Virus record (IMG/VR): IMGVR_UViG_3300044732_002489
Location: 1 to 20,515 of that record
Strand: one strand, 5' to 3'
DNA from: a virus
Length of the DNA: 20,515 bases
Within the stretch, counting starts at the first letter, position 1. Every line of letters starts with the position of its first letter. A program made the translations under genes and the position numbers. This document shows positions 642 to 20,515 of the stretch, piece after piece. The notes under the pieces are model-generated. The model was not told the DNA's origin, did no database searches, and saw nothing but the letters and a program-made list of their open reading frames with translations.

Positions 642-1583
642 TCATTTTCTTTTTTGTTCCATAAACCAATCTATAGTCATTTTTAGACCTGGTTCTAATT
701 CTATTGATGGAATGTACCCAAATGATTTTGAGTTATTTATATCAGCTAAAGAATTCTGAATTTCTCCTTTTCTTGGAGATTCGTAAATAGGTTCAATATC
801 AGAATTTAGACTGTCTTTGATTATTCTATAAAGTTCGTTAACGGATGTAGTTTTTCCCATTGCTACATTAAAAATAAATGATCCATTTTCATTTACATTT
901 TTAATCAAATGTATGTTAAAATCAACAACATTTTTTACATGAGTAAAATCTCTAGATTGAGTTCCATCTCCATATATGATTGGAGACTCGCCATCAACAA
1001 TAGATTTTATGAATTTTGGAATAACCGCAGAGTATTCTGAATCCCATTTTTGATTTTCTCCAAATACGTTAAAGTATCGCAATCCATAAAAATTGATTCC
1101 ATATATCTCATTTGACTGTCTAGCTATCATCTCATCCATTCGCTTACTTAGAGCATAAGGAGAAAGAGGTTTTCCGATAACCGTTTCTTTTTTGTATTCA
1201 GCCGGATCGTCTCCATATACAGAAGATGAACTTGCATATATGATTTTTTTGATGTTGTTATTTTTTGCAGCTTCAACGATATTCATAAAGCCACATACAT
1301 TATTTAACATGTAATCTTTTGGAATTTCCATAGATTTTGGAACAGATCCCCATGCTGCTTGATGACATATAACGTCAATTCTTTCGCAAATTTCATTTAC
1401 TAACTCAAAGTCACATATATCTCCTCTCATTAAAAAAATCTTGTCCGACTTTACTAGGTTTTTAGGATCTCCATTTACCAGGTTGTCAATTATGAAGATT
1501 CTTGTAATTTCTGGATCTTCACATAATTTGTTAGCTATATTAGATCCGATGAATCCAGCACCTCCGGTTATTAGTACATTCAT
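642..1583 (-). CDS. NAD-dependent UDP-sugar 4-epimerase, WbpP/Gne type
   Basis: A 313-residue extended short-chain dehydrogenase/reductase that probably interconverts UDP-GlcNAc and UDP-GalNAc (or the uronic acid forms) to feed the adjacent glycosyltransferases. The Rossmann nucleotide-binding motif GGAGFIG is at residues 7-13, the Ser cluster SSSS at 118-121, and the catalytic YxxxK pair is Y143/K147 (YALSK). The segments SAVIPKF near 185 and GDGTQSRDF at 205-213 match the substrate-binding region of WbpP-like 4-epimerases rather than RmlB-type dehydratases. Length is normal for the family. Its start overlaps the end of the upstream small glycosyltransferase gene by four bases (ATGA type), and it ends one base before gp17. 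The exact sugar is inferred; a 4-epimerase acting on UDP-Glc or a related NDP-sugar remains possible. Confidence 0.88.
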   Translation of the reverse strand: MNVLITGGAGFIGSNIANKLCEDPEITRIFIIDNLVNGDPKNLVKSDKIFLMRGDICDFELVNEICERIDVICHQAAWGSVPKSMEIPKDYMLNNVCGFMNIVEAAKNNNIKKIIYASSSSVYGDDPAEYKKETVIGKPLSPYALSKRMDEMIARQSNEIYGINFYGLRYFNVFGENQKWDSEYSAVIPKFIKSIVDGESPIIYGDGTQSRDFTHVKNVVDFNIHLIKNVNENGSFIFNVAMGKTTSVNELYRIIKDSLNSDIEPIYESPRKGEIQNSLADINNSKSFGYIPSIELEPGLKMTIDWFMEQKRK

Positions 1584-2203
1584 ATTTTATTTATTTCGTT
1601 AACAATTTCGTATTCGATATTCCAATCAGTATTGCATAGAGGGTCACTTAAAAAAATTTCTCTATTTTTTGATGTATCTCTATTTATATGTTTAGTAGAG
1701 AAAGCTGGATCAACTTCTAATTTTATAGGAGCAATTTCAAATGAATAACCTAATCTTTTTGCTCTTCTAATGAAATCAATATCGGACATTCCATAATTGC
1801 CACTATAAATGGTATTCCATCCTCCTATTTTTATATAGTCTTCTTTTCTTATTAGGATGTGTGAAGGATTTGGTAGTAATTGCTTATCTCCACAAACTCT
1901 ATTAAAGTGAAAAATTGTTTTGTCCGGGATATCTATTTTAGAAATTTCTGAATAATCTGCTCGATGATCTAAATCAAATCTCAATATAACATCTCCTTTA
2001 CATTTAAGAACTCCAAGGTTAACTGCATCCGAATTGAATAACAAATCTTCTTTTATTCTGTAGACATTTGCCCAATCTATCTTTAGAGGAGAAGGACTAC
2101 AATCGTCAACTACTACTAGGTCTAAATCGCAAGATCTCAAATTAGATTCTTGCCACATTAATGCATCGTATGAATTGTAGTAACAAGTGGATAGGCTTAA
2201 CAT
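1580..2203 (-). CDS. Small GT-A (GT2-like) glycosyltransferase
   Basis: A 207-residue protein with features of a GT-A fold glycosyltransferase, expected to transfer a sugar from an NDP donor. VVVDDCSPSP at residues 30-39 is the strand-plus-Asp nucleotide-binding segment, RFDLDHR at 75-81 looks like the DxD metal site, and GGWNTIYSGNYGMSDIDFIRR at about 117-137 corresponds to the acceptor region with the catalytic-base Asp. The usual IPTYN opening is replaced by STCYYNSYDAL, so it is a divergent, compact member lacking any membrane segment. It lies four bases after the 1059-residue glycosyltransferase gene and overlaps the epimerase start by four bases, placing it in a translationally coupled sugar cassette. 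Family level is fairly clear; donor and acceptor cannot be read from the sequence. Confidence 0.72.
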   Translation of the reverse strand: MLSLSTCYYNSYDALMWQESNLRSCDLDLVVVDDCSPSPLKIDWANVYRIKEDLLFNSDAVNLGVLKCKGDVILRFDLDHRADYSEISKIDIPDKTIFHFNRVCGDKQLLPNPSHILIRKEDYIKIGGWNTIYSGNYGMSDIDFIRRAKRLGYSFEIAPIKLEVDPAFSTKHINRDTSKNREIFLSDPLCNTDWNIEYEIVNEINKI

Positions 2204-2207
2204 AAAT

Positions 2208-5200
2208 CTAGATATGATTTTGTATTGAATCTGCGTTCATGTATTCTTTTTCTTTTATGACGTTACTATATCCAGCACTATCACCGTAATGAAGACATTT
2301 TAGTTCTCCATCGGAATATCCAATCCAAAATTCAGCTTCATGTCTATCTCCAATTCTTATTCTATCGATATCCGGCAAAGACTTTATATAGCTTGATTTT
2401 GACCACCAAAAATTGCCAGAAAAATGTTTTGGATTCCTTTTGTACCTGGATTTGTATTCTGATGTTGACCACCAGAATTTGTCGGTTGATCCCGATACAC
2501 TCTCCATTGATGAAGGAGTCTCTCGTATTTTAACACCAACTGCATCATATCCGTCTTTTAATGATTCAATACAAGAAGAATAATCATCTATCAAATAATG
2601 CTCCATGTATCTTCTCCAAGCCCTTATAGGTTCTATTCTACGAGCATCTTTAATTTTACTAACTCCTTTGGTATGTAGGTAGTAACAATAAAACTCGTCT
2701 TTTGATGCCATCTCTTTAATCTGATTTAAGATTCCAAACTCATACTCATTCTGATTAGTTAGGTGGATCCTTATATCGACATTGAAATTCTTTTTATATG
2801 AATCGATAATTTTATTAAAATCCTCTAGGTCTGAATCTACTTTGTAATAGACTCTTAAGAATAAAACATTGGTATCTTTCATTAAGTTAGAATTGAACAA
2901 TCTTTCCATTTGCTCAACGACTATAGATTTCCAATCATTAATGAGAGCTACAAAATAGAACCCGTATATTCGCATACCTTTCACCGATATATCTTCTTTT
3001 TGACTACGGTAACCCAAATCAAGGTAATTTTTTATGATTCTTTTCAAAGAGGTCTTTTCTTTGATCTCTTTCATTTTTTTCAATGCTATATTCCATTCAG
3101 CTTTACCAAATGTACTATAAATCTTTTTTATGACATTATCCACCGATTCATCATTAGGATCGCAATAGTAAGGATAATCACTTCCTAGCATTTCTATGTT
3201 ATGAGCACTTCTATTAGCGATTACTGGACATCCAAGAGACGCTGCAGTTGATATCTTAGTCAATGGTTGTATCTTATCATCTTCGCCCTTTGGTTTGACG
3301 GCGTAGTGAACGTTGTAGTGTTCATAAAGACTTATCTTCTCATCAAAGTCATACCAATCTATGCTGTGTCTTTCTATATTAGAGTTTTTACCATAACACT
3401 TCTCTGGTTGACCTATATAGCATATTCTAGGAGAAGAAATTCCATCGTGTATGCTTATATTACTAAATCTTTCATCCCAATGATGGTATATGACTTTACA
3501 CTTCTCGGGACTTTTGAATATGTGTCTCAATTCCTCCATCTGTCTAACCGAGGTGAATATACCATAGTCAAATGATTTGAATGTATTGAGATTATGTTTA
3601 GATTGGTCAAAATCTACCATATCACATATGACTTCGTTAAATTCGGTCAGCGGTAAAGCTTTTTCATAATTTGACATCTTTAGGAGCACAATTTTCTTGT
3701 ACTTTATCTTATTAGATTCATTAAAAGAAACGATATTACATCCGATTTTTTCTGATATGTCCCTACCTCTCATTTTCGTAGATCCCCAATTACCTCTACC
3801 TTCATCGTATACGAAGCATAAGTTGTTATTGAATACTCGACTTTTCTTATGAGGAGTAGGTATGTAATTTCCTCTTTTGTCGGTATCTACTTTGATGAGA
3901 ATACTCTTTCGTCTATCTTCTATCTTGAAAGTTCCTATAGAAACTCCAGCTTTACTAATTGAATACGGAAAAGCAATCTGATCTCTGCTCGAGTACCTCA
4001 ATATCTCTTCCCACCATATGTTATTGAAGTTTTGTACTCGTTTAGTATTTTTTCTTAACATCAAACCACATTCATAAAGTCCCGAACCAATGCCAAATTT
4101 TCGGTATTTCTCTAGCTGATCGGAAATTCGAGATTCGCTATCTAGTTTAGATTCTATACATTGAGCTCCCTCTTCATAAATGGAATTTCTCTTATGATGT
4201 CGGAAAACCAAGATCTCCTTTTTAGACTCTACTATCTCGCCTACTATTTTGTTAGGATCTTCGGTTAACATCATATTAGCATCGATGTGTAAAGAGTAGT
4301 CATGATTAGGAAGTAATTCATGTGGATGCGTTCTTATATACTTGCATATAAGTTTTGTATTCTTTAGCTTAGTTATGTGAGGAAACTTACTTATGTTTAT
4401 TACTTCCCATCCGTCAATCTCAATATCTCTATCTAAGAAAGCTATACATTTCGTGTTATCAAATTTTTTCGTTGGACGTAAATTGTCGTAATCTCCTATA
4501 TTTTCAGTAAAGACTACGATTCTAGGTGATTTGTTGAAAACCACACTAAAATCTTCTGATATCGTTGATTGTGAATTTCTAAAAAAACGTCTACTTTTTG
4601 ACATTCTTCCGTGATCTTCTTTGTATCTTCTAACATAGGCAAATCTATCTGAACTAGGAACCGAAATAGTTAGATTTTTACGATCTACATAATAGCAATT
4701 AGAAAGAATTTTACCTGTTTTCATAGAAGCCTCGGATCCAAAACATAAAGTAAACCTATTAAAGTATTCACTATCTCCTCCATATCTGGTATCATCATAA
4801 TATCCTAATATGTCAAAAACTTCTCTTTTGTATAGAGTCGTATTTTCGCAAAATGAATATGTGCTAACTACCTTTTTTGTATTAAAATCAACTCGGTTGT
4901 ATCCACAAGAAACACCTTTTGTATTGACATCTAAATCAAAAAATCCTAATTGAAATTCTAATTTATCTGGTAGCATTAAATCATCGGAATCATGAATACA
5001 AAAATAATCAAATCCTAGGTCAGATCCGAAATAAAGACCTATGTTAATTGATCGATAAGTTCCTAAATTTTTATTGTTTTTTAGTACTTTTACACGAGTA
5101 TCTTTTATAGAATTAAGAATTTCATATGTTCTATCTGTGCTGCAATCATCGACAACAACTACCAAGAGATCTTGATATGTTTGATTTAGAACTGAATTTA

Positions 5201-5387
5201 CTGAATCTAATATAGTCTTTTCTGAATTATAAGTCGGAATAATAACCAACACTTTACCTATGTTTATTGAATAACTAGTAATCTCTTCTTTAATCTCTTC
5301 TTTAATATCAATCTTCGGTCTTTTGAAATTAATGCCATGATTTTGTTTCTTACTCCAACCATGAACCTTTTTTAATTTACTACTCAT
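2208..5387 (-). CDS. Multidomain glycosyltransferase (GT2 + DUF616-like + GT-B-like + C-terminal GT-like)
   Basis: A 1059-residue cytoplasmic protein that appears to hold four transferase-like modules. Residues about 44-240 are a GT2 domain: IIPTYNSEKT (49-58), VVDDCS (78-83), DSDD (133-136) and GGDSEYFNR (203-211). Residues about 288-495 resemble DUF616/TOD1-type transferases, starting RIVVFTENIGDYDNLRP, with HIDANM (367-372) and RHHKR (396-400). Residues about 520-795 look GT-B/GT4-like, with KISTAASLGCPVIANRS near 711-727, the usual nucleotide-sugar-binding half. Residues about 804-1045 form a further domain with YLHTKGVS (903-910) and HFSGNFWWSKSSYI (988-1001), as in some polysaccharide-cluster transferases. 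No transmembrane segment is evident. The start overlaps the deacetylase stop (ATGA). Probably builds or extends a short glycan on a virion or host-surface target. The first domain is confident, the other three less so. Confidence 0.8.
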   Translation of the reverse strand: MSSKLKKVHGWSKKQNHGINFKRPKIDIKEEIKEEITSYSINIGKVLVIIPTYNSEKTILDSVNSVLNQTYQDLLVVVVDDCSTDRTYEILNSIKDTRVKVLKNNKNLGTYRSINIGLYFGSDLGFDYFCIHDSDDLMLPDKLEFQLGFFDLDVNTKGVSCGYNRVDFNTKKVVSTYSFCENTTLYKREVFDILGYYDDTRYGGDSEYFNRFTLCFGSEASMKTGKILSNCYYVDRKNLTISVPSSDRFAYVRRYKEDHGRMSKSRRFFRNSQSTISEDFSVVFNKSPRIVVFTENIGDYDNLRPTKKFDNTKCIAFLDRDIEIDGWEVINISKFPHITKLKNTKLICKYIRTHPHELLPNHDYSLHIDANMMLTEDPNKIVGEIVESKKEILVFRHHKRNSIYEEGAQCIESKLDSESRISDQLEKYRKFGIGSGLYECGLMLRKNTKRVQNFNNIWWEEILRYSSRDQIAFPYSISKAGVSIGTFKIEDRRKSILIKVDTDKRGNYIPTPHKKSRVFNNNLCFVYDEGRGNWGSTKMRGRDISEKIGCNIVSFNESNKIKYKKIVLLKMSNYEKALPLTEFNEVICDMVDFDQSKHNLNTFKSFDYGIFTSVRQMEELRHIFKSPEKCKVIYHHWDERFSNISIHDGISSPRICYIGQPEKCYGKNSNIERHSIDWYDFDEKISLYEHYNVHYAVKPKGEDDKIQPLTKISTAASLGCPVIANRSAHNIEMLGSDYPYYCDPNDESVDNVIKKIYSTFGKAEWNIALKKMKEIKEKTSLKRIIKNYLDLGYRSQKEDISVKGMRIYGFYFVALINDWKSIVVEQMERLFNSNLMKDTNVLFLRVYYKVDSDLEDFNKIIDSYKKNFNVDIRIHLTNQNEYEFGILNQIKEMASKDEFYCYYLHTKGVSKIKDARRIEPIRAWRRYMEHYLIDDYSSCIESLKDGYDAVGVKIRETPSSMESVSGSTDKFWWSTSEYKSRYKRNPKHFSGNFWWSKSSYIKSLPDIDRIRIGDRHEAEFWIGYSDGELKCLHYGDSAGYSNVIKEKEYMNADSIQNHI

Positions 5388-6109
5388 AATCTAGTAAAGT
5401 TCAGTTTTAATTTTTTTGCTCTATTTATTATTTGCTTAATTGCATCAAGAGTTTCGAATCCGAGTCCGTTAGTATGTAAAAGATATACATCTCCTCCTTT
5501 CATGAATTTAAGTATGTTTGCAATCGCTCTATCTCTTGATTCTTCTTTAGGTCCTAACTTACCTTTAAATCGATCAAGAACTTTTCCAGTCCATGCTAAA
5601 AACTCAATTCCTTTTGAATTGAGGTATTTAATTGAGTAATCAGTAAAAGCTCCATGAGGAAATCGATAATACTCTACCTTTATGTCAAATGTAGATTCTA
5701 AGTAAGTTATGGTATCATCTATTTCTTTTCTTTGATCTTCTTCTGAAAGATTCAATATATTGACATGATGATTTCCATGAGCTTGTATAGAAAAAAGTGG
5801 ATTTTTAAAGACAGTAAGATCTTTGTCTTTATTTTCTTTACACCACTCAACGTTAAGCATAAAGGTTGCAGGTATTCTATTTTCTATCAACCAATTAATG
5901 ATCTCTAGGTCTAAATCATGAGATGGACACATATCAAATGTCAAATGGAGATGAGTATCTCCAACTGACTTAATTGCTCTAGGATCTAGTTCTTTTTCTA
6001 AATGCCTAAGCGGATTTTTCATGATAAAATCATGATATTTACTAAAGGTCCCTCTCTTGATGTCTTGTATCATTTTCTTGTTGGTAATCGCAGTCCTCAT
6101 CAAATCCAT
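5384..6109 (-). CDS. NodB-type polysaccharide deacetylase
   Basis: A 241-residue carbohydrate esterase family 4 (NodB homology) protein, expected to remove N- or O-acetyl groups from a sugar polymer or glycan. Motif 1 is LTFDMC with D59, motif 2 HGNHH is at 111-115 (two metal His separated as in HxxxH), motif 3 RFPHG is at 149-153, and a motif-5-like VYLLH lies near 208-212. The second Asp of the classic TFDD, normally a metal ligand, is Met here, so metal binding or activity may differ; some deacetylase subfamilies do carry TFDxC variants. There is no signal peptide, so it would act in the cytoplasm or with a virion part. It sits 50 bases downstream of the gp16-like gene and overlaps the large glycosyltransferase start by four bases, so it opens the sugar cassette. 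Met4 is an alternative start. Confidence 0.82.
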   Translation of the reverse strand: MDLMRTAITNKKMIQDIKRGTFSKYHDFIMKNPLRHLEKELDPRAIKSVGDTHLHLTFDMCPSHDLDLEIINWLIENRIPATFMLNVEWCKENKDKDLTVFKNPLFSIQAHGNHHVNILNLSEEDQRKEIDDTITYLESTFDIKVEYYRFPHGAFTDYSIKYLNSKGIEFLAWTGKVLDRFKGKLGPKEESRDRAIANILKFMKGGDVYLLHTNGLGFETLDAIKQIINRAKKLKLNFTRL

Positions 6110-12246: not shown

Positions 12247-12645
12247 TTAGAATTTAGAATCTCTAGTAAAGAAGAATGCAACGAATCCATATTCATCGTA
12301 TCTAACTACTTTCAAATTAGAATCTAACATAAGATCAAATCCGCTAGGAAGATCAAGATCACCTAGATCTGTAGGAACTCCTCTAAATTTAGAGTCCATA
12401 GCATCATATGCCTTAGTTAAAACAGCGTCATCATAATCAGATTCAGAATCTAAACGACAAACATTTGAAGGATTTTCACCTAAAAGATCACATGCCTTTT
12501 GATGATATGCTATAACATCGTCGTCATCCATTTCATCCATAAGAATATCTACTGAATCATACATATTATAAGCTTTACTAGCTAAAGCTCCTTCATTAAT
12601 CATAGATTCGTTCAAAAAATCTTCGAATTTTGGTATATTTTTCAT
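12247..12645 (-). CDS. Possible internal head protein with capsid-targeting-like N-terminus
   Basis: A 132-residue acidic protein of unknown function. It opens MKNIPKFEDFLNESMINEGALAS, which resembles the capsid-targeting sequence of T4 internal proteins (MKTYQEFIAEA) and includes two prohead-protease-like sites, LNE|S at residues 11-13 and INE|G at 16-18, consistent with the T4 gp21 rule (L/I)xE followed by a small residue. The rest is rich in Asp (MDEMDDDD near 36-43) with an aromatic C-terminus (YGFVAFFFTRDSKF). It follows gp44 by 28 bases, has its own GATATATAC motif 20 bases upstream and a terminator downstream, so it may be a separately controlled late gene. Being packaged and cleaved is an inference from the N-terminus; the protein family is not recognised. 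Confidence 0.6.
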   Translation of the reverse strand: MKNIPKFEDFLNESMINEGALASKAYNMYDSVDILMDEMDDDDVIAYHQKACDLLGENPSNVCRLDSESDYDDAVLTKAYDAMDSKFRGVPTDLGDLDLPSGFDLMLDSNLKVVRYDEYGFVAFFFTRDSKF

Positions 12646-13659: not shown

Positions 13660-13896
13660 TTAATTGATGTTTTCTTCATAATGGTTTTTACCGCTTGATT
13701 GAGATGTCATTGTTTCTCCTTTAGATGTAAAGTAGTGTACATGACCTCCATCGTTAAATCGATAGACTCGGATTCCGTCCTTTTCGAATAGGAATTCAAC
13801 TTCAAATCCATTACCTTCAGTAGAAGTAGTTTGTGCATCTTTGTAGCAACCAGTTAGTGCTAATGCGGTCAAAGAGATTAAAAAGATTTTTTTCAT
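13660..13896 (-). CDS. Small lipoprotein (DUF4884-like)
   Basis: I chose the ATG at 13896-13894, giving MKKIFLISLTALALTGC as a type II signal peptide: two Lys, a hydrophobic core and a lipobox LTGC with Cys17 as the lipid-modified residue. The longer frame from 13944 would put 16 residues before the signal. The mature part is about 61 residues with FEVEFLFEKDGIRVYRF and GHVHYFTSKGET, similar to what I recall of DUF4884 lipoproteins of Bacteroidota. It would sit in a host envelope membrane; phage lipoproteins of this size sometimes block superinfection or alter the envelope. It starts one base after the 64-residue gene ends and precedes gp44 by 32 bases. Lipoprotein status is firm, family and role are tentative. 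Confidence 0.8.
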   Translation of the reverse strand: MKKIFLISLTALALTGCYKDAQTTSTEGNGFEVEFLFEKDGIRVYRFNDGGHVHYFTSKGETMTSQSSGKNHYEENIN

Positions 13897-13897
13897 T

Positions 13898-14092
13898 TTA
13901 TGAGAGTTTTTGTTTGATATTTTTACGATTAAGGGATAGATCAAAAATAAAGCCAGAAAGGAATAGCTTCATAGTAAGAGATTTTCTACAATTATCATCT
14001 ACGTACTGGACGGTTTTATTCCAGTCTAGTTTGTGCTTGGTAACCAACATATCGATTAGTTCCAGCGTTGGGTTTGGTTTTGGTTGTTTCAT
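13898..14092 (-). CDS. Small protein of unknown function (64 aa)
   Basis: A 64-residue basic protein opening MKQPKPNPTLELIDMLVTKHKLDW. The first 30 residues look like a helix (LELIDMLVTKHKL) and residues 41-52 are hydrophobic (MKLFLSGFIFDLSL), too short for a confident membrane helix. It starts one base after the 63-residue gene and ends one base before the lipoprotein start, so the three are probably read from one message. No family is recognised. The tight spacing and lack of an overlapping better frame support it as a real gene. Confidence 0.6.
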   Translation of the reverse strand: MKQPKPNPTLELIDMLVTKHKLDWNKTVQYVDDNCRKSLTMKLFLSGFIFDLSLNRKNIKQKLS

Positions 14093-14440: not shown

Positions 14441-14875
14441 ATGTTCAAACCCTATCACCAACATCTTTTAGTAAAAGGAACAATCAAAAAGACTACTAAA
14501 AGTACAGAAGAAATTAACAATTGGTTTAGTGAACTAGTCAAAAAAGTTGGAATGGTAGTTGTTGCCGGTCCTACATCTGTTTATATAGATGAACTTGGAA
14601 ACGAAGGACTAACCGGGACAGTAACTCTAGCAACATCTCATGCTTCAATCCATATATGGGATGCTACGGATCCAATGTGTTTTCAATTTGATATTTACAG
14701 CTGTAAATGTTATGACATTAAAATCGTAATTGACCATCTAAATGAAGCATTCGATATGATTGATTTTGAATGGATAGAAATTGATCGTAACGATCGCATG
14801 ACTATTGCCGATAGAGGCCATGGTAAAGGAGGAGAATTTTGGAGTGATTTCGATCAACTCAAATACAAAAATTAA
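14441..14875 (+). CDS. speD: S-adenosylmethionine decarboxylase-like protein (SpeD family)
   Basis: A 144-residue protein of the prokaryotic AdoMet decarboxylase family, pyruvoyl enzymes that self-cleave and convert AdoMet to the aminopropyl donor for spermidine. The core SHASIHIW (residues 66-73) matches the family SHxxIHxW: S66 would become the pyruvoyl group, H71 aids processing, and C88 in DIYSCKC stands for the catalytic Cys of DVFTCG. Two features differ: the residue before the Ser is Thr rather than the usual Glu, and the loop between His71 and Cys88 is about two residues longer. It is the only plus-strand gene, with its own terminator. Known: relatives in the family include pyruvoyl Arg/Orn decarboxylases, so AdoMet may not be the substrate. 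No spermidine synthase is seen in the window. Confidence 0.82.
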   Translation: MFKPYHQHLLVKGTIKKTTKSTEEINNWFSELVKKVGMVVVAGPTSVYIDELGNEGLTGTVTLATSHASIHIWDATDPMCFQFDIYSCKCYDIKIVIDHLNEAFDMIDFEWIEIDRNDRMTIADRGHGKGGEFWSDFDQLKYKN

Positions 14876-14891
14876 AAGCAATACACATAAG

Positions 14892-14930
14892 AAAAGGTCA
14901 GTTATTTTATTAACTGACCTTTTGTTTTTT
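14892..14930 (+). terminator. Terminator of speD-like gene, possibly bidirectional
   Basis: A perfect 13-bp inverted repeat, AAAAGGTCAGTTA at 14892-14904 and its complement at 14911-14923, with a six-base loop, followed by GTTTTTT on the plus strand. It lies between convergent genes. On the minus strand the stem ends in TTTTCTT, so it may also stop transcripts of the ATP-grasp gene, less strongly. Confidence 0.85.
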
Positions 14931-14980: not shown

Positions 14981-16474
14981 TTATTTTTCAAATTTAATTC
15001 CAGCGTGATTGTCTTCTTTTGCATCGCCGGCAGAGTATTCTCCTTCGAAAGAAGTAACTATGAATGTTTTAGTAGGAGATACTGCACATCCAATACGTTC
15101 CATAAATTTTCTATTTACCAAGAACTTCGTCGATTTATCCTTGCGATCAACCAACGAAACATGAACGTCTTTATAAGTTTTACCATTGAATTGTATTTCT
15201 ATTTCTATTATAGGTCTTTCTTCAACAACCTTGCCAACTTCGGCATTTGCCCAACCAACAACTTTGTGTGCGAATTTTTTACCACCTAGTTCCCATTTAA
15301 CTTCTTTTTTGTTATCACTTAGATCCATTTTATCATATGTTAATGAAGATGATAAAGATCCGTTACCAGTGTCAAATTTAGCAACGATATCACCAATTCC
15401 CGGAATATGAATTACTTCTCGGAATCCAACAACTCTTTTTGAACGAATCCAATTTGATTTATCTTCTAAGAAATCTATAATGTCCGATACAACATCTATG
15501 CCAGTTGCTTTTTTAAGACCTTGAGTTCCAGGAGAAGCATTAACTTCTAGAACATAATTTTTACCTGTTTTCTTATCAACAATGATATCAACTCCACACC
15601 AATTACATCCAATAGCTTTCGCAGAATTTATTGCGATTTCTTCTTGTTCCGGAGTAACTTTAGTTTTTTCAACGGTTCCTCCCAATGAATAGTTAGTTCT
15701 AAAATCTTTCTTAACTCGGTTTCTTCTCATATACCCAAGAAGTACTGCATCAGTATCTTCAGGTTTTGGCGAGTTGAACTTTCGTGTAAGAACGTGTATT
15801 CTTAAATCATATTCAGATTCGATCTTCTCTTGGATAAGAACTTCTAATTTAGGATCCATTTTCCAAAGAGTTTGAAGTACGGATTTTAAAGATGCCAGCG
15901 ATTCAATAATTGAGACACCAATTCCCTGAGAACCGGAAAGTAATTTAAGTACAACTGGGAATTTATTACCAACTTGTTTAACGGCAGAATCAATAGTCTC
16001 TTCGTTTTCGATAATTGCCATTTTAGGAACCGGAATACCAGCGTCCATGAGTATTTTTGATGTAACATATTTATTTTCACAAGCTAGAATAGAATCGATA
16101 GTATTTACTACGAAAAATCCAGCATCTTCTAATTTTGAACAAACATCCCTTGTAAAAGTAGATCTTACAACTCCTCTACGAGTTAAAATAGCCGTATCAT
16201 CTACATTAATACCCATTGGCTTTTTATTTTCCTTATCAAAGATAAGTAGATCATATTTCATCGTTTTATCTTCGGTAACTACGCAACTGTTGATATCGAC
16301 TATTCTATGTTGAATTCCTCTTTTCTTCAGTTCTTCAGCAACTGCCGGAACCGTATAGGATTCTTCACTCATGTTAGACAGAAGAATAATCTTGATTTTT
16401 GGTTTTTTAGCTTTAGCTTCTTTTGCTTCGTTAATGGTCACCCATTCGTCGAAATACAGCATTTGTCTTTTCAT
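14981..16474 (-). CDS. RimK-type ATP-grasp ligase fused to RimB-like retropepsin domain
   Basis: A 497-residue two-domain enzyme. Residues about 28-340 are a RimK-type ATP-grasp, which joins amino acids (Glu in RimK) to a protein C-terminus using ATP: glycine-rich loop LLSGSQGIGV (178-187), YDLRIHVL (222-229), DFRTNYSLGG (257-266), GVDIIVD (294-300) and EVNASPG (310-316) with metal ligands E310 and N312. Residues about 346-474 match RimB/DUF785 (PF05618), an aspartic protease of retropepsin type: AKFDTGNGS with D368-T369-G370, and FLVNRKFMERIG (451-462). The N-terminus YFDEWVTINE|AKEAK resembles a capsid-targeting sequence with an INE|A cleavage site. The start overlaps the zinc-ribbon gene by 44 bases; M5 is an alternative. 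RimK and RimB are separate genes in bacteria I recall, where they extend and trim ribosomal protein S6. Domains confident; target inferred. Confidence 0.88.
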   Translation of the reverse strand: MKRQMLYFDEWVTINEAKEAKAKKPKIKIILLSNMSEESYTVPAVAEELKKRGIQHRIVDINSCVVTEDKTMKYDLLIFDKENKKPMGINVDDTAILTRRGVVRSTFTRDVCSKLEDAGFFVVNTIDSILACENKYVTSKILMDAGIPVPKMAIIENEETIDSAVKQVGNKFPVVLKLLSGSQGIGVSIIESLASLKSVLQTLWKMDPKLEVLIQEKIESEYDLRIHVLTRKFNSPKPEDTDAVLLGYMRRNRVKKDFRTNYSLGGTVEKTKVTPEQEEIAINSAKAIGCNWCGVDIIVDKKTGKNYVLEVNASPGTQGLKKATGIDVVSDIIDFLEDKSNWIRSKRVVGFREVIHIPGIGDIVAKFDTGNGSLSSSLTYDKMDLSDNKKEVKWELGGKKFAHKVVGWANAEVGKVVEERPIIEIEIQFNGKTYKDVHVSLVDRKDKSTKFLVNRKFMERIGCAVSPTKTFIVTSFEGEYSAGDAKEDNHAGIKFEK

Positions 16475-16952
16475 TTTTATGAATATATTTTATGAATTTT
16501 CGTTGTGTTTCTTTAATCAATTTTTTGTGATATTCAGTAAAAGCAATCATCGAATCTAAAACAGATTGACTGACATTATTAGCATCCTTTACATAATATG
16601 TATAACACTTTGAACATACAAAATTGTCTATTTTGAAGTTATCTACTTTAGATTTGATAGAATTTTTACAATATGCGCAATTCCAATCAAGTAACTTAAA
16701 AGTCCGTTTAATAGATGAATAAGTTGATACTTCTCGTGTCTCTGGGTTCACAAATGGTCTTTGTAAATGAGATACATTAATAGCCGCATCTTCTAACCTA
16801 AACAAACACATTATGAATCTATCATCACTAGAATTTTTGCTAATGATTGGATTTTTCAAAAGTACTCTTTGATATCTAGGACTTAAACCTTTTAATACGA
16901 TACCAAAACGAGTTTTTTCTCTTCCTCGATTCTGCCTCTTAATGTTAATCAT
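16431..16952 (-). CDS. Zinc-ribbon protein of unknown function
   Basis: I chose the ATG at 16952-16950 (MINIKRQNRG), which overlaps the stop of the 580-residue gene by eight bases; a longer frame from 16973 adds seven residues inside that gene. The 173-residue protein is basic, with a zinc-ribbon-like pair CAYC (92-95) and CSKC (113-116), spaced by 17 residues. The C-terminal third is helical and Lys-rich (YHKKLIKETQRKFIKYIHKNEK). The N-terminus (KTRFGIVLKGLSPRYQRVLLKN) might be an RNA- or DNA-binding basic region. No nuclease (HNH) signature accompanies the Cys pairs. It lies between the 580-residue gene and the ATP-grasp gene and overlaps the latter by 44 bases, so coupled translation is likely. 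Nucleic-acid binding is plausible, the role is unknown. Confidence 0.7.
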   Translation of the reverse strand: MINIKRQNRGREKTRFGIVLKGLSPRYQRVLLKNPIISKNSSDDRFIMCLFRLEDAAINVSHLQRPFVNPETREVSTYSSIKRTFKLLDWNCAYCKNSIKSKVDNFKIDNFVCSKCYTYYVKDANNVSQSVLDSMIAFTEYHKKLIKETQRKFIKYIHKNEKTNAVFRRMGDH

Positions 16953-18687
16953 TAATGATGTAATTTGGATCATTAAGCTTTTCTAAAAGAGAAACTATAG
17001 CTGCTTCAATTGCCCAACAATTAAGTTCTAAAGAACTAACTGATTCAGTAGGAGTATCATCTAGATCTTTAATAGCTTTTTCTATTTCTTTAGCATTGTT
17101 AAGAATAGCTTCTTTCTTTTTAGGATCTTCCTCTTTATTTGCTGCGTCTTTTACAGTTTTTAATTTATCTCCTAATAAAGTCTTTTTAGCATCAACTTCA
17201 GCTTTAGGTTCAGTCTTAGGCTTTTCTTCTTTAGGAGTTTCAGTCTTAGGTTTTTCTTCCTTAGGAGTTTCCGTCTTAGGTTTTTCTTCCTTAGGAGTTT
17301 CGGTCTTAGGCTTTTCTTCTTTAGGAGTTTTAGTTTCTATTTCATCGCTTCCTAACTCATCATCGGACTCTTCTGAATCTGCATTGGTTGATGTGTCTGT
17401 ATCTTCATCGTCAGATTCTTCACTATCTCCTTTAGGTTCAGATGTAGTTACGCCGGATGTTTCAGGAGCATCAGCATCTTTAGTATCTTCAGCACCAGTC
17501 TCAGCTCCCTTATCGGTTTCTTCATCATTCTCTGATGATTGAATTTTCTTAAGTTGTTCTTTCTCTTCAGGAGTACCTTCTTTCTGAGCTTTTTCATTGG
17601 ATTTAGCAAGCATTTCTTCTTCACCTTTTTCGTAGGTTTTAACTGCTTCTTTATCCTTACTAACGATTTTTTGTAACTCTGCCTTTTGTTCGGCATTATT
17701 TACCATTTGTATACAAGCATCTCTCATTTTTATACGATTCTCTATACGTAAACGAGTTTTTAACTTGTTCAATGGAGTTAACAATTTTGTTATTGCTCCG
17801 GAAACAAGTAGATCAGTTTTTTCTTTAAGATCTGATATCTTTTGAGCTTGAAGATCTTTTTTATTATCGATTGATTTTTGTAAAGTTTCTATCTCGGCTG
17901 CTAATTTATCAATCTCCTCTGATTTAGCATTTCCATCATCTTTACCCTTTTCCGGAGTAACTGCTTTAATAACATCCTTGGCACCGCCTAAAACTTCTTT
18001 TAATTTACTAATTAAACCTTTCTTTTTAGCTTTAAGAGCTTCTATTTTTCCTTTAACTCCTTTGGATTCTTCTTCGTAAACAAAAGATTCGTTTGGAATC
18101 TTTTTGTCTTTAGGTCCTGATTTTTCTTTTTTATCTGAATCTGCTAGTTTTTGAATTTCTAAATCAATATCGTTAATCTGCCCTTGTAATTCAGCGGCAG
18201 CTTTCCATTTATCTGCCTTTTCTTTTGCAGCATCGGTATCTTTATCTTCTAATTTAGCTCGTTTAACTGCCAATTCGCTAGATTTTATCTTGGTATCAAA
18301 AATCTTTTTGTCAATCTTATTTCTTTCTGATTTTTTATCTTTAGGGACTGATTCCTTTTTTGATTTTAATTTTTCTAGTGCATCTTGCAAAGCTTTTTTA
18401 CCTGCAGATATCTTTTCTATTTTAGCTTTGATCTTAGAAGCCTTTCCAGGTCTTTTAGCTTCTAAAAGAATTTCGAAGAATAAATTAGATTTTAGATCTT
18501 CTCCGTATACAGATTCTTCTATAAATGTTACTACATCTTCTATAGAAGTACCTTCATCAAATTCAACGATATAATCATCCGATATACTCTCAACGAACAA
18601 TTCGAAAATTTCTTTGTTATTAATTTCATATACCATTTTTTGATAGTTCTCTAATACAAGATCTCGTAAGTCTTTTTCTGTTTGCAT
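16945..18687 (-). CDS. Lys/Glu-rich coiled-coil head-associated protein (scaffold/core candidate)
   Basis: A 580-residue, highly charged protein. Residues 1-75 are acidic and helical and end LFFEILLE|AKRPGK, an LxE|A site of the prohead-protease type. Residues about 76-380 are Lys/Glu-rich and heptad-like (IKAKIEKISAGKKALQDAL, EIDKLAAEIETLQKSIDN). Residues 386-450 are very acidic (SEESDDEDTDTS). Residues 454-493 are four copies of TPKEEKPKTE, and the C-terminal 85 residues are helical again, with a late CWAIEAAIVSLLEKL. No signal peptide, membrane segment or enzyme motif is seen. In T4, charged coiled-coil core proteins such as gp22 surround the capsid gene, and this gene lies downstream of the major capsid gene, so a prohead core or internal-protein role is a reasonable guess. 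A tail-associated role is possible. Confidence 0.7.
   Translation of the reverse strand: MQTEKDLRDLVLENYQKMVYEINNKEIFELFVESISDDYIVEFDEGTSIEDVVTFIEESVYGEDLKSNLFFEILLEAKRPGKASKIKAKIEKISAGKKALQDALEKLKSKKESVPKDKKSERNKIDKKIFDTKIKSSELAVKRAKLEDKDTDAAKEKADKWKAAAELQGQINDIDLEIQKLADSDKKEKSGPKDKKIPNESFVYEEESKGVKGKIEALKAKKKGLISKLKEVLGGAKDVIKAVTPEKGKDDGNAKSEEIDKLAAEIETLQKSIDNKKDLQAQKISDLKEKTDLLVSGAITKLLTPLNKLKTRLRIENRIKMRDACIQMVNNAEQKAELQKIVSKDKEAVKTYEKGEEEMLAKSNEKAQKEGTPEEKEQLKKIQSSENDEETDKGAETGAEDTKDADAPETSGVTTSEPKGDSEESDDEDTDTSTNADSEESDDELGSDEIETKTPKEEKPKTETPKEEKPKTETPKEEKPKTETPKEEKPKTEPKAEVDAKKTLLGDKLKTVKDAANKEEDPKKKEAILNNAKEIEKAIKDLDDTPTESVSSLELNCWAIEAAIVSLLEKLNDPNYIIND
17211..17330 (-). repeat. Four tandem 30-bp units inside the 580-aa gene
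   Basis: Units lie at 17211-17240, 17241-17270, 17271-17300 and 17301-17330, each encoding TPKEEKPKTE. The first and fourth share one set of silent variants and the second and third another, so an ancient two-unit duplication with inversion of order, or conversion, is likely. The unit is a multiple of three, so copy number can change without breaking the frame. Confidence 0.95.
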
Positions 18688-18713: not shown

Positions 18714-19277
18714 TTATTCAGCTTCGTCATCTTCGACTGGAGGAAGTACGGCTTGAGGTATTTCCCCGGTTTTGCCTTCAAGTTCCCATTTCTTAAGTTT
18801 TAATTCATTTAACTTTGCGTAATCTTTGAATCTATCTTGAGTGGCTTCAAATTCAGCGGCAACTGATTTTTTAACTTTTCTTTTTTTCAAAAGATAAGCT
18901 ATTAAAAGTCCAACTGCTAATACTCCAAGGGCTGCTCCTTTTACTGCTGATTTTGCAGTATCAACCGCTGAATCAAAATCTTTTTGAGGATCATAGTATT
19001 TACCACCGGCATCTCCACCAGTCCATCCATCATCTTCAGATAACAAATCTAGTTCGTATGATTCATATAGATGTTTAGATAAAGAACTTTCCGGAGAAAA
19101 TTCATTAGCAACCGATTCGCACATATGACCAACACCGGTTTGATACAAAAGCAAAAACTTTACAATTTCATCAAATTCTTGTTTAGACGGCGTGTGTTTG
19201 TATTGATTGCATAATACCATATACTCGTTGAGTTCTTCTCTTAGAGCTACATAGTCTGATTGATCGATTAATTTCAT
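18714..19277 (-). CDS. Single-pass membrane protein with acidic tail
   Basis: A 187-residue protein of unknown function. Residues 1-70 are soluble and helical, 76-100 are Gly/Asp-rich (EDDGWTGGDAGGKYY), residues about 111-130 are one hydrophobic segment (AVKGAALGVLAVGLLIAYLL), followed by KKRKVKK, and a charged helix to the acidic end VEDDEAE. The positive cluster after the segment predicts a cytoplasmic C-terminus. The layout could suit a head-assembly initiator, which in T4-like phages starts at the inner membrane, or a virion component released in the host. It is the first gene after the capsid terminator, with GATATATAC 23 bases upstream, and precedes the 580-residue gene by 26 bases. The acidic Glu-ended tail is of interest given the RimK-type ligase downstream. 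Confidence 0.68.
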   Translation of the reverse strand: MKLIDQSDYVALREELNEYMVLCNQYKHTPSKQEFDEIVKFLLLYQTGVGHMCESVANEFSPESSLSKHLYESYELDLLSEDDGWTGGDAGGKYYDPQKDFDSAVDTAKSAVKGAALGVLAVGLLIAYLLKKRKVKKSVAAEFEATQDRFKDYAKLNELKLKKWELEGKTGEIPQAVLPPVEDDEAE

Positions 19278-19376: not shown

Positions 19377-20515
19377 TTAAACTAGAGAACCAAGGTTTGA
19401 ATCTAAGTTAACACCTGAAGTTAAGTACATAGTTTCTGGGTGGAAACCAGCTTCAACTAAAGCATAACGAGATTTAACCGCAACTTTAGGAGCCATAGTA
19501 CCTTCAGCGATAGTTTGTACTGATTCAGCCATTAAGTAAGGCATGAATACTAAACCTGGAGAGTTACCATCACCTTTACGTCCAACACAGAAACGAGTAT
19601 CGTTCCAAGCACGGTTAGGATCGTTATAGATAGCTAATCCAGCCAAAGTACCGATTGGATATAAAGATCCACTCATTTGGTTGATTGTGTTAGCCATTGG
19701 TGCAGGTACGAATCCAGCAACATCTTGTAAAGCAGAACATACTTGACCGTTAGTTACTACGAAAGTAGCAGGTCCACGACGACCTCTAATAGCGATTAAG
19801 TTAGCGATTGCAAGAACCTTAGACATAATCTTACGTTGACGTGTATGTAAGTTTTCAGAAGCTGAGTTGTTTACCTCAGTTGCAGCTACAACTTGAGCCT
19901 TAAGAATAGAAGACTGTAAGTAAGCACCGAAGTTAGTTGCAGGGTTACATCCACCAGTTGCCAATGTATTAGCAGCGATTGCAGTAGATCCTAAGTTCAA
20001 GAAGAAGTTACCTCCTTGAGTACGGATTACGTATTCGTGGTTTCTTTCTCCTAGAGCGAAGATACGATCTAAGATGTTTTTGTTGATTGATTGAGTCAAT
20101 TCGTTGATTAATACTGATTCAACTTGAGATACAGCATCTACACCGAATTGTTTAAGATCTTGAACTTGCTCACGAGTTACTGCAGCAGCAACTTGGAAAG
20201 TCTTAGCTTCAACTGATTTGTTGAATAGACTTAAGTTCATTACGTTATCCATAGTTCCTTCACCAGCGTTTCTTGAATATGGATCATTCAATTCAGGTGC
20301 ATTGTAAGAATAAGGAGTAGTGTTAAGAGCAGCACCAGAGAATCCTGTGATGTGATCTTCTAAAGCCTTAACTAATTCAACTGTTACACCAGCAGTAGCA
20401 CCAGTTACACCACCGATACCAGCAGCAATTGCAGTTTGTAAGTTAGACAATAAAGTTCCAGAAGTCATACCAACCGAAGTAGTTTGACGTACGTGGAAGA
20501 TTGGCATTCCGTCAA
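19377..20515 (-). CDS. 23: Major capsid protein, T4 gp23-like (5' part cut by right edge)
   Basis: The C-terminal 378 or so residues of the hexameric shell protein. The frame is open through the edge: codons GAC GGA precede the ATG at 20507, and DGMPIFHVRQT corresponds to the middle of gp23 (near TGQVFALR), so that ATG is internal and well over 100 residues are missing. Matches to T4 gp23 in order are LFNKSVEAKTFQVAAAVTRE with EIDKQVIEAKSRQLKAAYSIE, SQVESVLINELTQSINKNIL with AELSGILATEIMLEINREVV, and LVFMPYLMAESVQTI followed by VAVKSRYALVEAGFHP with IYYAPYVALTPL and MGFKTRYGIGINPF. GC-richer codons and few A/T runs set it apart from its neighbours, consistent with high expression. A strong terminator follows. 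The N-terminal cleavage site lies outside the window. Confidence 0.93.
   Translation of the reverse strand, partial: DGMPIFHVRQTTSVGMTSGTLLSNLQTAIAAGIGGVTGATAGVTVELVKALEDHITGFSGAALNTTPYSYNAPELNDPYSRNAGEGTMDNVMNLSLFNKSVEAKTFQVAAAVTREQVQDLKQFGVDAVSQVESVLINELTQSINKNILDRIFALGERNHEYVIRTQGGNFFLNLGSTAIAANTLATGGCNPATNFGAYLQSSILKAQVVAATEVNNSASENLHTRQRKIMSKVLAIANLIAIRGRRGPATFVVTNGQVCSALQDVAGFVPAPMANTINQMSGSLYPIGTLAGLAIYNDPNRAWNDTRFCVGRKGDGNSPGLVFMPYLMAESVQTIAEGTMAPKVAVKSRYALVEAGFHPETMYLTSGVNLDSNLGSLV

What the first reader, a model, noticed from the sequence alone, without database searches (positions are those of the whole stretch)
14981..16474. Phage-encoded fusion of a RimK-type ligase with its opposing RimB-like protease, carrying a possible capsid-targeting leader
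One polypeptide holds an ATP-grasp ligase of the RimK type (EVNASPG, GVDIIVD) and a RimB/DUF785 retropepsin domain (FDTG at 367-370). In bacteria these are opposing activities that lengthen and trim a Glu tail on ribosomal protein S6. The first 16 residues end in a gp21-like site (INE|A) after a YFDEW motif, so the enzyme may be packaged and injected, allowing it to modify host ribosomes before any phage gene is expressed, or to tail a phage head protein. The canonical DTGA is DTGN, so protease activity may be altered. The domain calls are sequence-based; packaging and target are inference.
Basis: partly seen in the sequence, partly recalled or inferred. Interest (0 to 1): 0.85.

Follow-up and report, generated by a model that had tools for sequence, protein, structure and literature searches.

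The report
Head-packaged phage glutamate-tail editing enzyme
A T4-type phage carries one protein that can probably both add and cut off short glutamate tails on other proteins, and its front end looks like the address tag that T4 uses to load proteins into the virus head for injection into the host.

Summary
In detail: a 497-aa ORF on the MINUS strand (16474..14981) fuses a RimK-type ATP-grasp ligase (residues 27-343; Z about 30 to RimK crystals) to a RimB/DUF785-type retropepsin (345-475; Z 15.8 to RloA2). The fusion is not new. Monier 2008 reported phage RimK with C-terminal DUF785, and Little 2025 showed that a bacterial RimB-RimK hybrid is an active poly-Glu protease. At least 588 IMG/VR stretches encode relatives.

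The leader is the new part. Across divergent copies, residues 8-17 keep the layout of the T4 ipII/ipIII capsid-targeting sequence (54/84 copies with exact T4 spacing; shuffled mean 0.12) before an unconserved linker. Cellular RimK and cyanophage stand-alone RimK lack it. Unrelated neighbouring genes carry the same leader, and 22/28 large contigs encode a gp21-type protease. The distant homologue YerA41_066 was detected in virions by mass spectrometry. Packaging is therefore likely; cleavage, injection and enzymatic activity are inferred.

The S6-target idea is weak: S6 proteins of MAGs holding such contigs mostly lack Glu-ended tails. Verdict: new variant of a known kind.

The parts
14981..16474 (-). 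RimK-RimB fusion ORF, 497 aa
16427..16474 (-). Capsid-targeting-like leader, residues 1-16 (MKRQMLYFDEWVTINE), predicted gp21-type cleavage after E16
   Evidence: column conservation in A2; T4 ipII/ipIII comparison; pLDDT <50 over residues 1-23 with a short helix 8-14
16397..16426 (-). Unconserved linker, residues 17-26
15446..16396 (-). RimK pre-ATP-grasp and ATP-grasp ligase domain, residues 27-343
   Evidence: Z 30.7 over 289 residues, rmsd 2.6 to RimK 7qys; TIGR00768 over cut-off
15050..15442 (-). RimB/DUF785-like retropepsin domain, residues 345-475
   Evidence: Z 15.8 to RloA2 9g59, 15.6 to DUF785 2pma; profile hits
15362..15376 (-). FDTGN active-site motif, residues 367-371, D368 predicted catalytic
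   Evidence: DTGN in 87/87 phage copies; invariant in A2
16431..16973 (-). Conserved 160-180 aa neighbour overlapping the rimKB start by 44 bases; function unknown
16945..18687 (-). Acidic, repeat-rich putative prohead core protein
   Evidence: position and composition only
18714..19277 (-). Conserved neighbour between gp23 and the putative core protein
19377..20507 (-). gp23-type major capsid protein, 5' end cut by the window
   Evidence: PF07068 1.2e-30
12247..12645 (-). Second protein with a T4-spaced leader (MKNIPKFEDFLNES)
14892..14923 (.). Terminator-like hairpin between rimKB and the opposite-strand AdoMet decarboxylase gene
   Evidence: consensus scan only

Best explanation
The gene makes a two-headed poly-Glu editing enzyme that is carried in the phage head. 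The first ~16 residues act like the T4 internal-protein capsid-targeting sequence: they send the protein into the assembling prohead core and are probably removed by the gp21-type prohead protease after Glu16. The mature enzyme would be delivered with the DNA. In the host the RimK half would ligate Glu onto the C-terminus of a target protein, using ATP, and the RimB half (acting as a dimer) would trim the tail. Shown here: both folds, conserved ligase metal/ATP/Glu residues and the catalytic Asp, the family-wide leader, and gp21/gp23 in the same genomes. Shown by others: virion presence of a distant homologue. Inferred: cleavage, ejection, activities, and a host rather than phage target; the identity of the target is open.
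For: RimK fold Z about 30. Residues equivalent to PA RimK R64, R189, D248, E260, N262 (Glu or metal sites; PMC10092738, and general RimK knowledge for the metal sites; mapping read from the alignment) are R99, R225, D296, E310, N312, all invariant in 53 relatives. Retropepsin fold and invariant DTG. Leader: exact T4 ipII/ipIII spacing in 54/84 copies against a shuffled mean of 0.12; alignment columns F/Y8 87%, F/Y/W11 94%, L/I/V14 100%, E16 89%, then an unconserved linker. The same leader sits on unrelated proteins (G001: 10 N-terminal hits, 0.7 expected, p=4e-9). It is absent from cellular RimK and cyanophage stand-alone RimK. rimKB ends the gp23-core gene run in close relatives. 22/28 large contigs have gp21-type S77, 26/28 gp23. 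The YerA41 homologue is in virions by LC-MS/MS. A T4 CTS of 10 residues suffices for packaging and delivery (PMC9026906).
Against: The window copy lacks exact T4 spacing. YerA41_066, the only virion-detected homologue, has no canonical leader, and 63 proteins including RNR were found in that preparation, so contamination is possible. The bacterial RimBK hybrid showed protease but no S6-glutamylating activity. A subclade (L039, L043-L052) has a different N-terminus, F[VI]F[KQ]G. No activity was measured. The leader pattern was written after some of the leaders had been seen, though its positions come from T4.
Confidence: 0.62

Rival explanations
1. Packaged and injected enzyme whose target is host ribosomal protein S6 (RpsF), remodelling translation before phage genes are expressed.
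For: The RimK and RimB relatives with known function act on S6 (PMC11957791); fold and catalytic residues conserved.
Against: S6 proteins in MAGs that contain such phage-like contigs mostly do not end in Glu and Bacteroidetes-type ones end in a basic tail (binning is uncertain). Ribosomal protein S21 is found in only 4/28 RimKB-family records, so there is no broad ribosome package. Score far below the S6-ligase equivalog cut-off (100 against 331 bits).
Confidence: 0.2
2. Acts inside the prohead or during head assembly: gp21 cuts after Glu and so creates Glu-ended fragments, which RimK could extend and RimB could trim.
For: Gene sits in the gp23-core block in close relatives; leader targets the core; gp21-type protease cleaves after Glu (PMC9026906).
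Against: In other relatives the gene lies next to DNA polymerase/regA or replication genes (Mosig) or away from the head genes (L006, L023, L031). No conserved Glu-rich C-termini in head neighbours.
Confidence: 0.15
3. The leader is a conserved N-terminal helix with another role (for example dimer contact or host protein docking) and the enzyme acts as an ordinary cytoplasmic protein made during infection.
For: No direct packaging data for a leader-bearing copy; YerA41 copy lacks the canonical leader and is a middle gene.
Against: Leader is shared with unrelated proteins in the same genomes, matches T4 ipII/ipIII, is predicted detached and disordered, and is absent in cellular and cyanophage RimK.
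Confidence: 0.17

Closest known systems
Phage RimK with C-terminal DUF785 from marine metagenomes (Monier et al. 2008, PMC2530865)
   Same: Same domain order, T4-like genome context
   Different: Leader, packaging and retropepsin nature were not described in the passages read
RimBK hybrid of Desulfotalea psychrophila (Little et al. 2025, PMC11957791)
   Same: Same two domains in one chain; shows that the RimB part of a fusion can cut poly-Glu
   Different: Reversed order (RimB first); cellular; no leader reported; no S6 glutamylation seen. The cellular B-K example read here (L128) has DTGA
T4 internal proteins ipI/ipII/ipIII
   Same: Capsid-targeting leader layout and prohead-protease site
   Different: T4 IPs are small inhibitors of GmrSD restriction enzymes (PMC12373910), not enzymes of this kind
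YerA41_066 / g112, 'ribosomal protein modification protein'
   Same: Homologous fusion (32% identity), found in virions
   Different: No canonical leader; distant phage with modified DNA
Cyanophage RimK (S-RIM12, S-CAM8, S-RIM32)
   Same: Phage RimK ligase
   Different: No RimB domain, no leader, separate branch in the tree

Membership tests
RimK family alpha-L-glutamate ligase (TIGR00768) | Score over curated cut-off | tested here: met
   165.6 against 143.4 bits
RimK family alpha-L-glutamate ligase (TIGR00768) | RimK fold with Mg/ATP residues D, E, N | tested here: met
   Z 30.7; D296, E310, N312 invariant
RimK family alpha-L-glutamate ligase (TIGR00768) | Poly-Glu contacting residues (PA RimK S7, R8, S14, R64, S68, R189, N262) | tested here: inconclusive
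   R64, R189 and N262 equivalents invariant, S7 kept as S/T; R8 and S68 equivalents differ
30S ribosomal protein S6--L-glutamate ligase equivalog (NF007764) | Score over curated cut-off | tested here: not met
   100.3 against 331 bits
RimB/DUF785 (PF05618) | Pfam gathering score for this protein | tested here: not met
   19.1 against 27 bits; 30/53 relatives match at E<=0.01, best 7.6e-8
RimB/DUF785 (PF05618) | DUF785/retropepsin fold | tested here: met
   Z 15.8 to 9g59, 15.6 to 2pma, about 8 to HIV/Ddi1 proteases
RimB/DUF785 (PF05618) | Catalytic DTG motif | tested here: met
   DTG in 87/87, followed by N rather than A
RimB/DUF785 (PF05618) | Cleaves poly-Glu | not testable with these tools
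   needs biochemistry
RimBK hybrid (Little 2025) | RimB domain N-terminal to RimK | tested here: not met
   order is RimK then RimB
T4-type capsid-targeted internal protein | CTS-like leader (aromatic..aromatic-aliphatic..E|A/S/G) | tested here: met
   family level: 54/84 exact, columns conserved; window copy has two extra residues
T4-type capsid-targeted internal protein | Leader shared with otherwise unrelated proteins of the same phage | tested here: met
   G001 10 hits against 0.7 expected; window 12247-12645
T4-type capsid-targeted internal protein | gp21-type protease in the phage | tested here: met
   22/28 large relatives; upstream of gp23 in the L005 and L020 contigs; the window itself ends inside gp23, so not seen in the window
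T4-type capsid-targeted internal protein | Present in virion, cleaved, and ejected | not testable with these tools
   virion presence reported only for the distant YerA41 homologue

The most novel reading that the evidence does not exclude
A widespread class of T4-superfamily phages injects, with its DNA, a preformed write-and-erase enzyme for glutamate tails that reprograms a host protein (ribosomal or defence-related) before any phage gene is read; DTGN marks a retropepsin subfamily tuned for this use.
Probability: 0.3. Interest if true: 0.85.

Novelty: new variant of a known kind. Interest (0 to 1): 0.6.

Why it matters
T4 internal proteins with a known function are restriction inhibitors. 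A capsid-targeted protein-modifying enzyme spread over hundreds of environmental phages would show that heads deliver enzymes that rewrite host proteins at time zero. It would also explain the long-noted phage RimK-DUF785 fusion. The leader pattern gives a simple way to list the injected proteins of T4-superfamily phages from sequence alone.

Tried and rejected
DTGN as a decayed or altered site: rejected, invariant in 87/87. Ribosome-package idea through co-encoded S21: 4/28 only. Phage-encoded Glu-tailed substrates: none with EE ends or Glu5 runs in the window, G001 or Mosig (Glu5 runs are expected to be rare anyway). Whole-model structure search did not show the C-terminal domain because RimK fills the list, so it was folded alone. 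YerA41 structural neighbours share no CTS-like leader. In Mosig RimKB is the only leader hit, so the genome-wide leader class is not universal. Monophyly of phage RimKB is only moderately supported (87/73). No paper linking phage RimK to capsid targeting was found in the held library, which lacks most subscription journals. The text of Iyer and Aravind on ATP-grasp amidoligases was not available to check.

Full report
What is there. The finding's coordinates hold one open frame on the minus strand, 497 aa, in a 20,515-base IMG/VR virus record. It lies at the end of a same-strand run of head genes: gp23 major capsid protein (19377-20507, PF07068 1.2e-30), two uncharacterised proteins of which the larger is acidic and repeat-rich (putative prohead core), a conserved 180-aa protein whose end overlaps the rimKB start by 44 bases, then rimKB. 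Close relatives keep the order gp23, two neighbours, 160-170 aa gene, rimKB (L003, L005, L016, L020), and in the L005 and L020 contigs a gp21-type protease lies just before gp23.

The two enzymes. Residues 27-343 are RimK: TIGR00768 over its cut-off, and the AlphaFold model (mean pLDDT 86.3) matches RimK crystals at Z about 30 over 289 residues. The residues equivalent to P. aeruginosa RimK R64, R189 and N262 (poly-Glu contacts; PMC10092738) and D248 and E260 (metal sites, from general knowledge of RimK), mapped by reading the alignment, are invariant in 53 relatives. Other Glu contacts differ (R8, S68). Residues 345-475 are a RimB/DUF785-like retropepsin: weak from the single sequence, but a 53-member profile finds only RloA, RloA2 and DUF785 2pma with significance, and the domain folded alone (pLDDT 91.8) matches RloA2 at Z 15.8, with HIV-type and Ddi1 proteases at about 8. 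DTGN is invariant in 87 of 87 copies, against DTGA in the cellular relative L128. It is a family signature, not a lesion.

The leader. At least 588 IMG/VR stretches encode relatives. In an alignment of 53 diverse copies, columns 8, 11, 14, 16 and 17 are aromatic, aromatic, aliphatic, Glu, Ala/Ser/Gly in 75-100% of rows, followed by an unconserved, low-confidence linker. This is the layout of the T4 ipII/ipIII capsid-targeting sequence MKTYQEFIAE|A, read from the T4 record. 54 of 84 copies match its exact spacing in the first 30 residues, against 0.12 on average after shuffling; among 20 representatives under 60% identity, 7 match exactly and 13 with relaxed spacing. The window copy has two extra residues before INE|A. 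The same leader sits on other proteins: in the 148.8-kb relative G001, 10 N-termini match where 0.7 are expected (p=4e-9), nearly all without similarity in their mature parts; in the window, 12247-12645. Cellular RimKs start directly at the first strand, and so do cyanophage stand-alone RimKs. Of 28 large RimK-family phage records (27 with the fusion, plus Melnitz), 22 encode a gp21-type S77 protease and 26 a gp23. In T4, ten such residues suffice to package foreign proteins that are then delivered into the cell (PMC9026906).

Direct packaging evidence. The YerA41 homologue (32% identity) is annotated 'structural protein' and listed as 'Ribosomal protein modification protein' with the mark for proteins found in purified particles by LC-MS/MS (PMC7354516). 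I matched gene 066 of the record to g112 of the paper by product name and its place just after the ribonucleotide reductase genes. Its leader is not canonical, and 63 proteins were seen, so this supports but does not prove head packaging for the leader-bearing copies.

Target. S6 is the known target of RimK and RimB, but S6 proteins in genomes whose assemblies contain phage-like RimKB contigs mostly lack a Glu-ended tail, and Bacteroidetes-type ones end in a basic tail (such contigs may be mis-binned). A DUF4884 lipoprotein hints at a Bacteroidetes host for the window. The bacterial RimBK hybrid cut poly-Glu but did not glutamylate S6. The phage ORFs scanned show no Glu-Glu ends. The target is open; I put S6 at about 0.2.

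What is known and what is new. Phage RimK with C-terminal DUF785 was reported in 2008 (PMC2530865), and the cellular hybrid was characterised in 2025 (PMC11957791). I found no report of the leader or of head packaging for this enzyme in the searched library. The phage fusions cluster as one lineage (moderate support), from which the Melnitz RimK seems to have lost RimB while keeping a leader. I therefore file it as a new variant of a known kind.

Noticed in passing
12247-12645 (-): Unrelated 132-aa protein with an exact T4-spaced leader MKNIPKFEDFLNES: likely a second internal head protein.
   Followed up: partly
L006 contig (G001), e.g. L094:9783-10521, L096:16766-17053, L098:10463-16821: About ten otherwise mostly unrelated proteins with near-identical leaders MKHIKLFEQF[IL]NE[AGS]; probably an internal-protein repertoire.
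   Followed up: partly
L039, L043-L045, L047, L049-L052, N-terminus of rimKB: A subclade of RimKB has a different conserved N-terminal motif, F[VI]F[KQ]G, instead of the F..F[IL].EA leader.
   Followed up: no
L011:82-1131 (Melnitz-3): RimK-only protein with a leader (FSQFITEE) nested inside the RimKB clade: RimB apparently lost.
   Followed up: partly
14441-14875 (+): S-adenosylmethionine decarboxylase (PF02675 1.1e-13) on the opposite strand, facing rimKB across a hairpin; suggests phage polyamine synthesis.
   Followed up: no
13660-13944 (-): Small lipoprotein with DUF4884 similarity (E 9e-7, just under its cut-off); hints at a Bacteroidetes host. No obvious Shine-Dalgarno before rimKB fits.
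   Followed up: no
642-6109 (-): Block of sugar genes: NAD-dependent epimerase, glycosyltransferase-like proteins (one of 1059 aa) and a polysaccharide deacetylase.
   Followed up: no
L121, L123: RimKB fusions in 400-410 kb contigs binned as Erysipelotrichaceae/Firmicutes MAGs; possibly very large phage genomes mis-binned.
   Followed up: no
L009:6503-6712 (Mosig): Phage-encoded ribosomal protein S21 about 5 kb from rimKB; also in 3 of the 27 other RimK-family records tested.
   Followed up: yes
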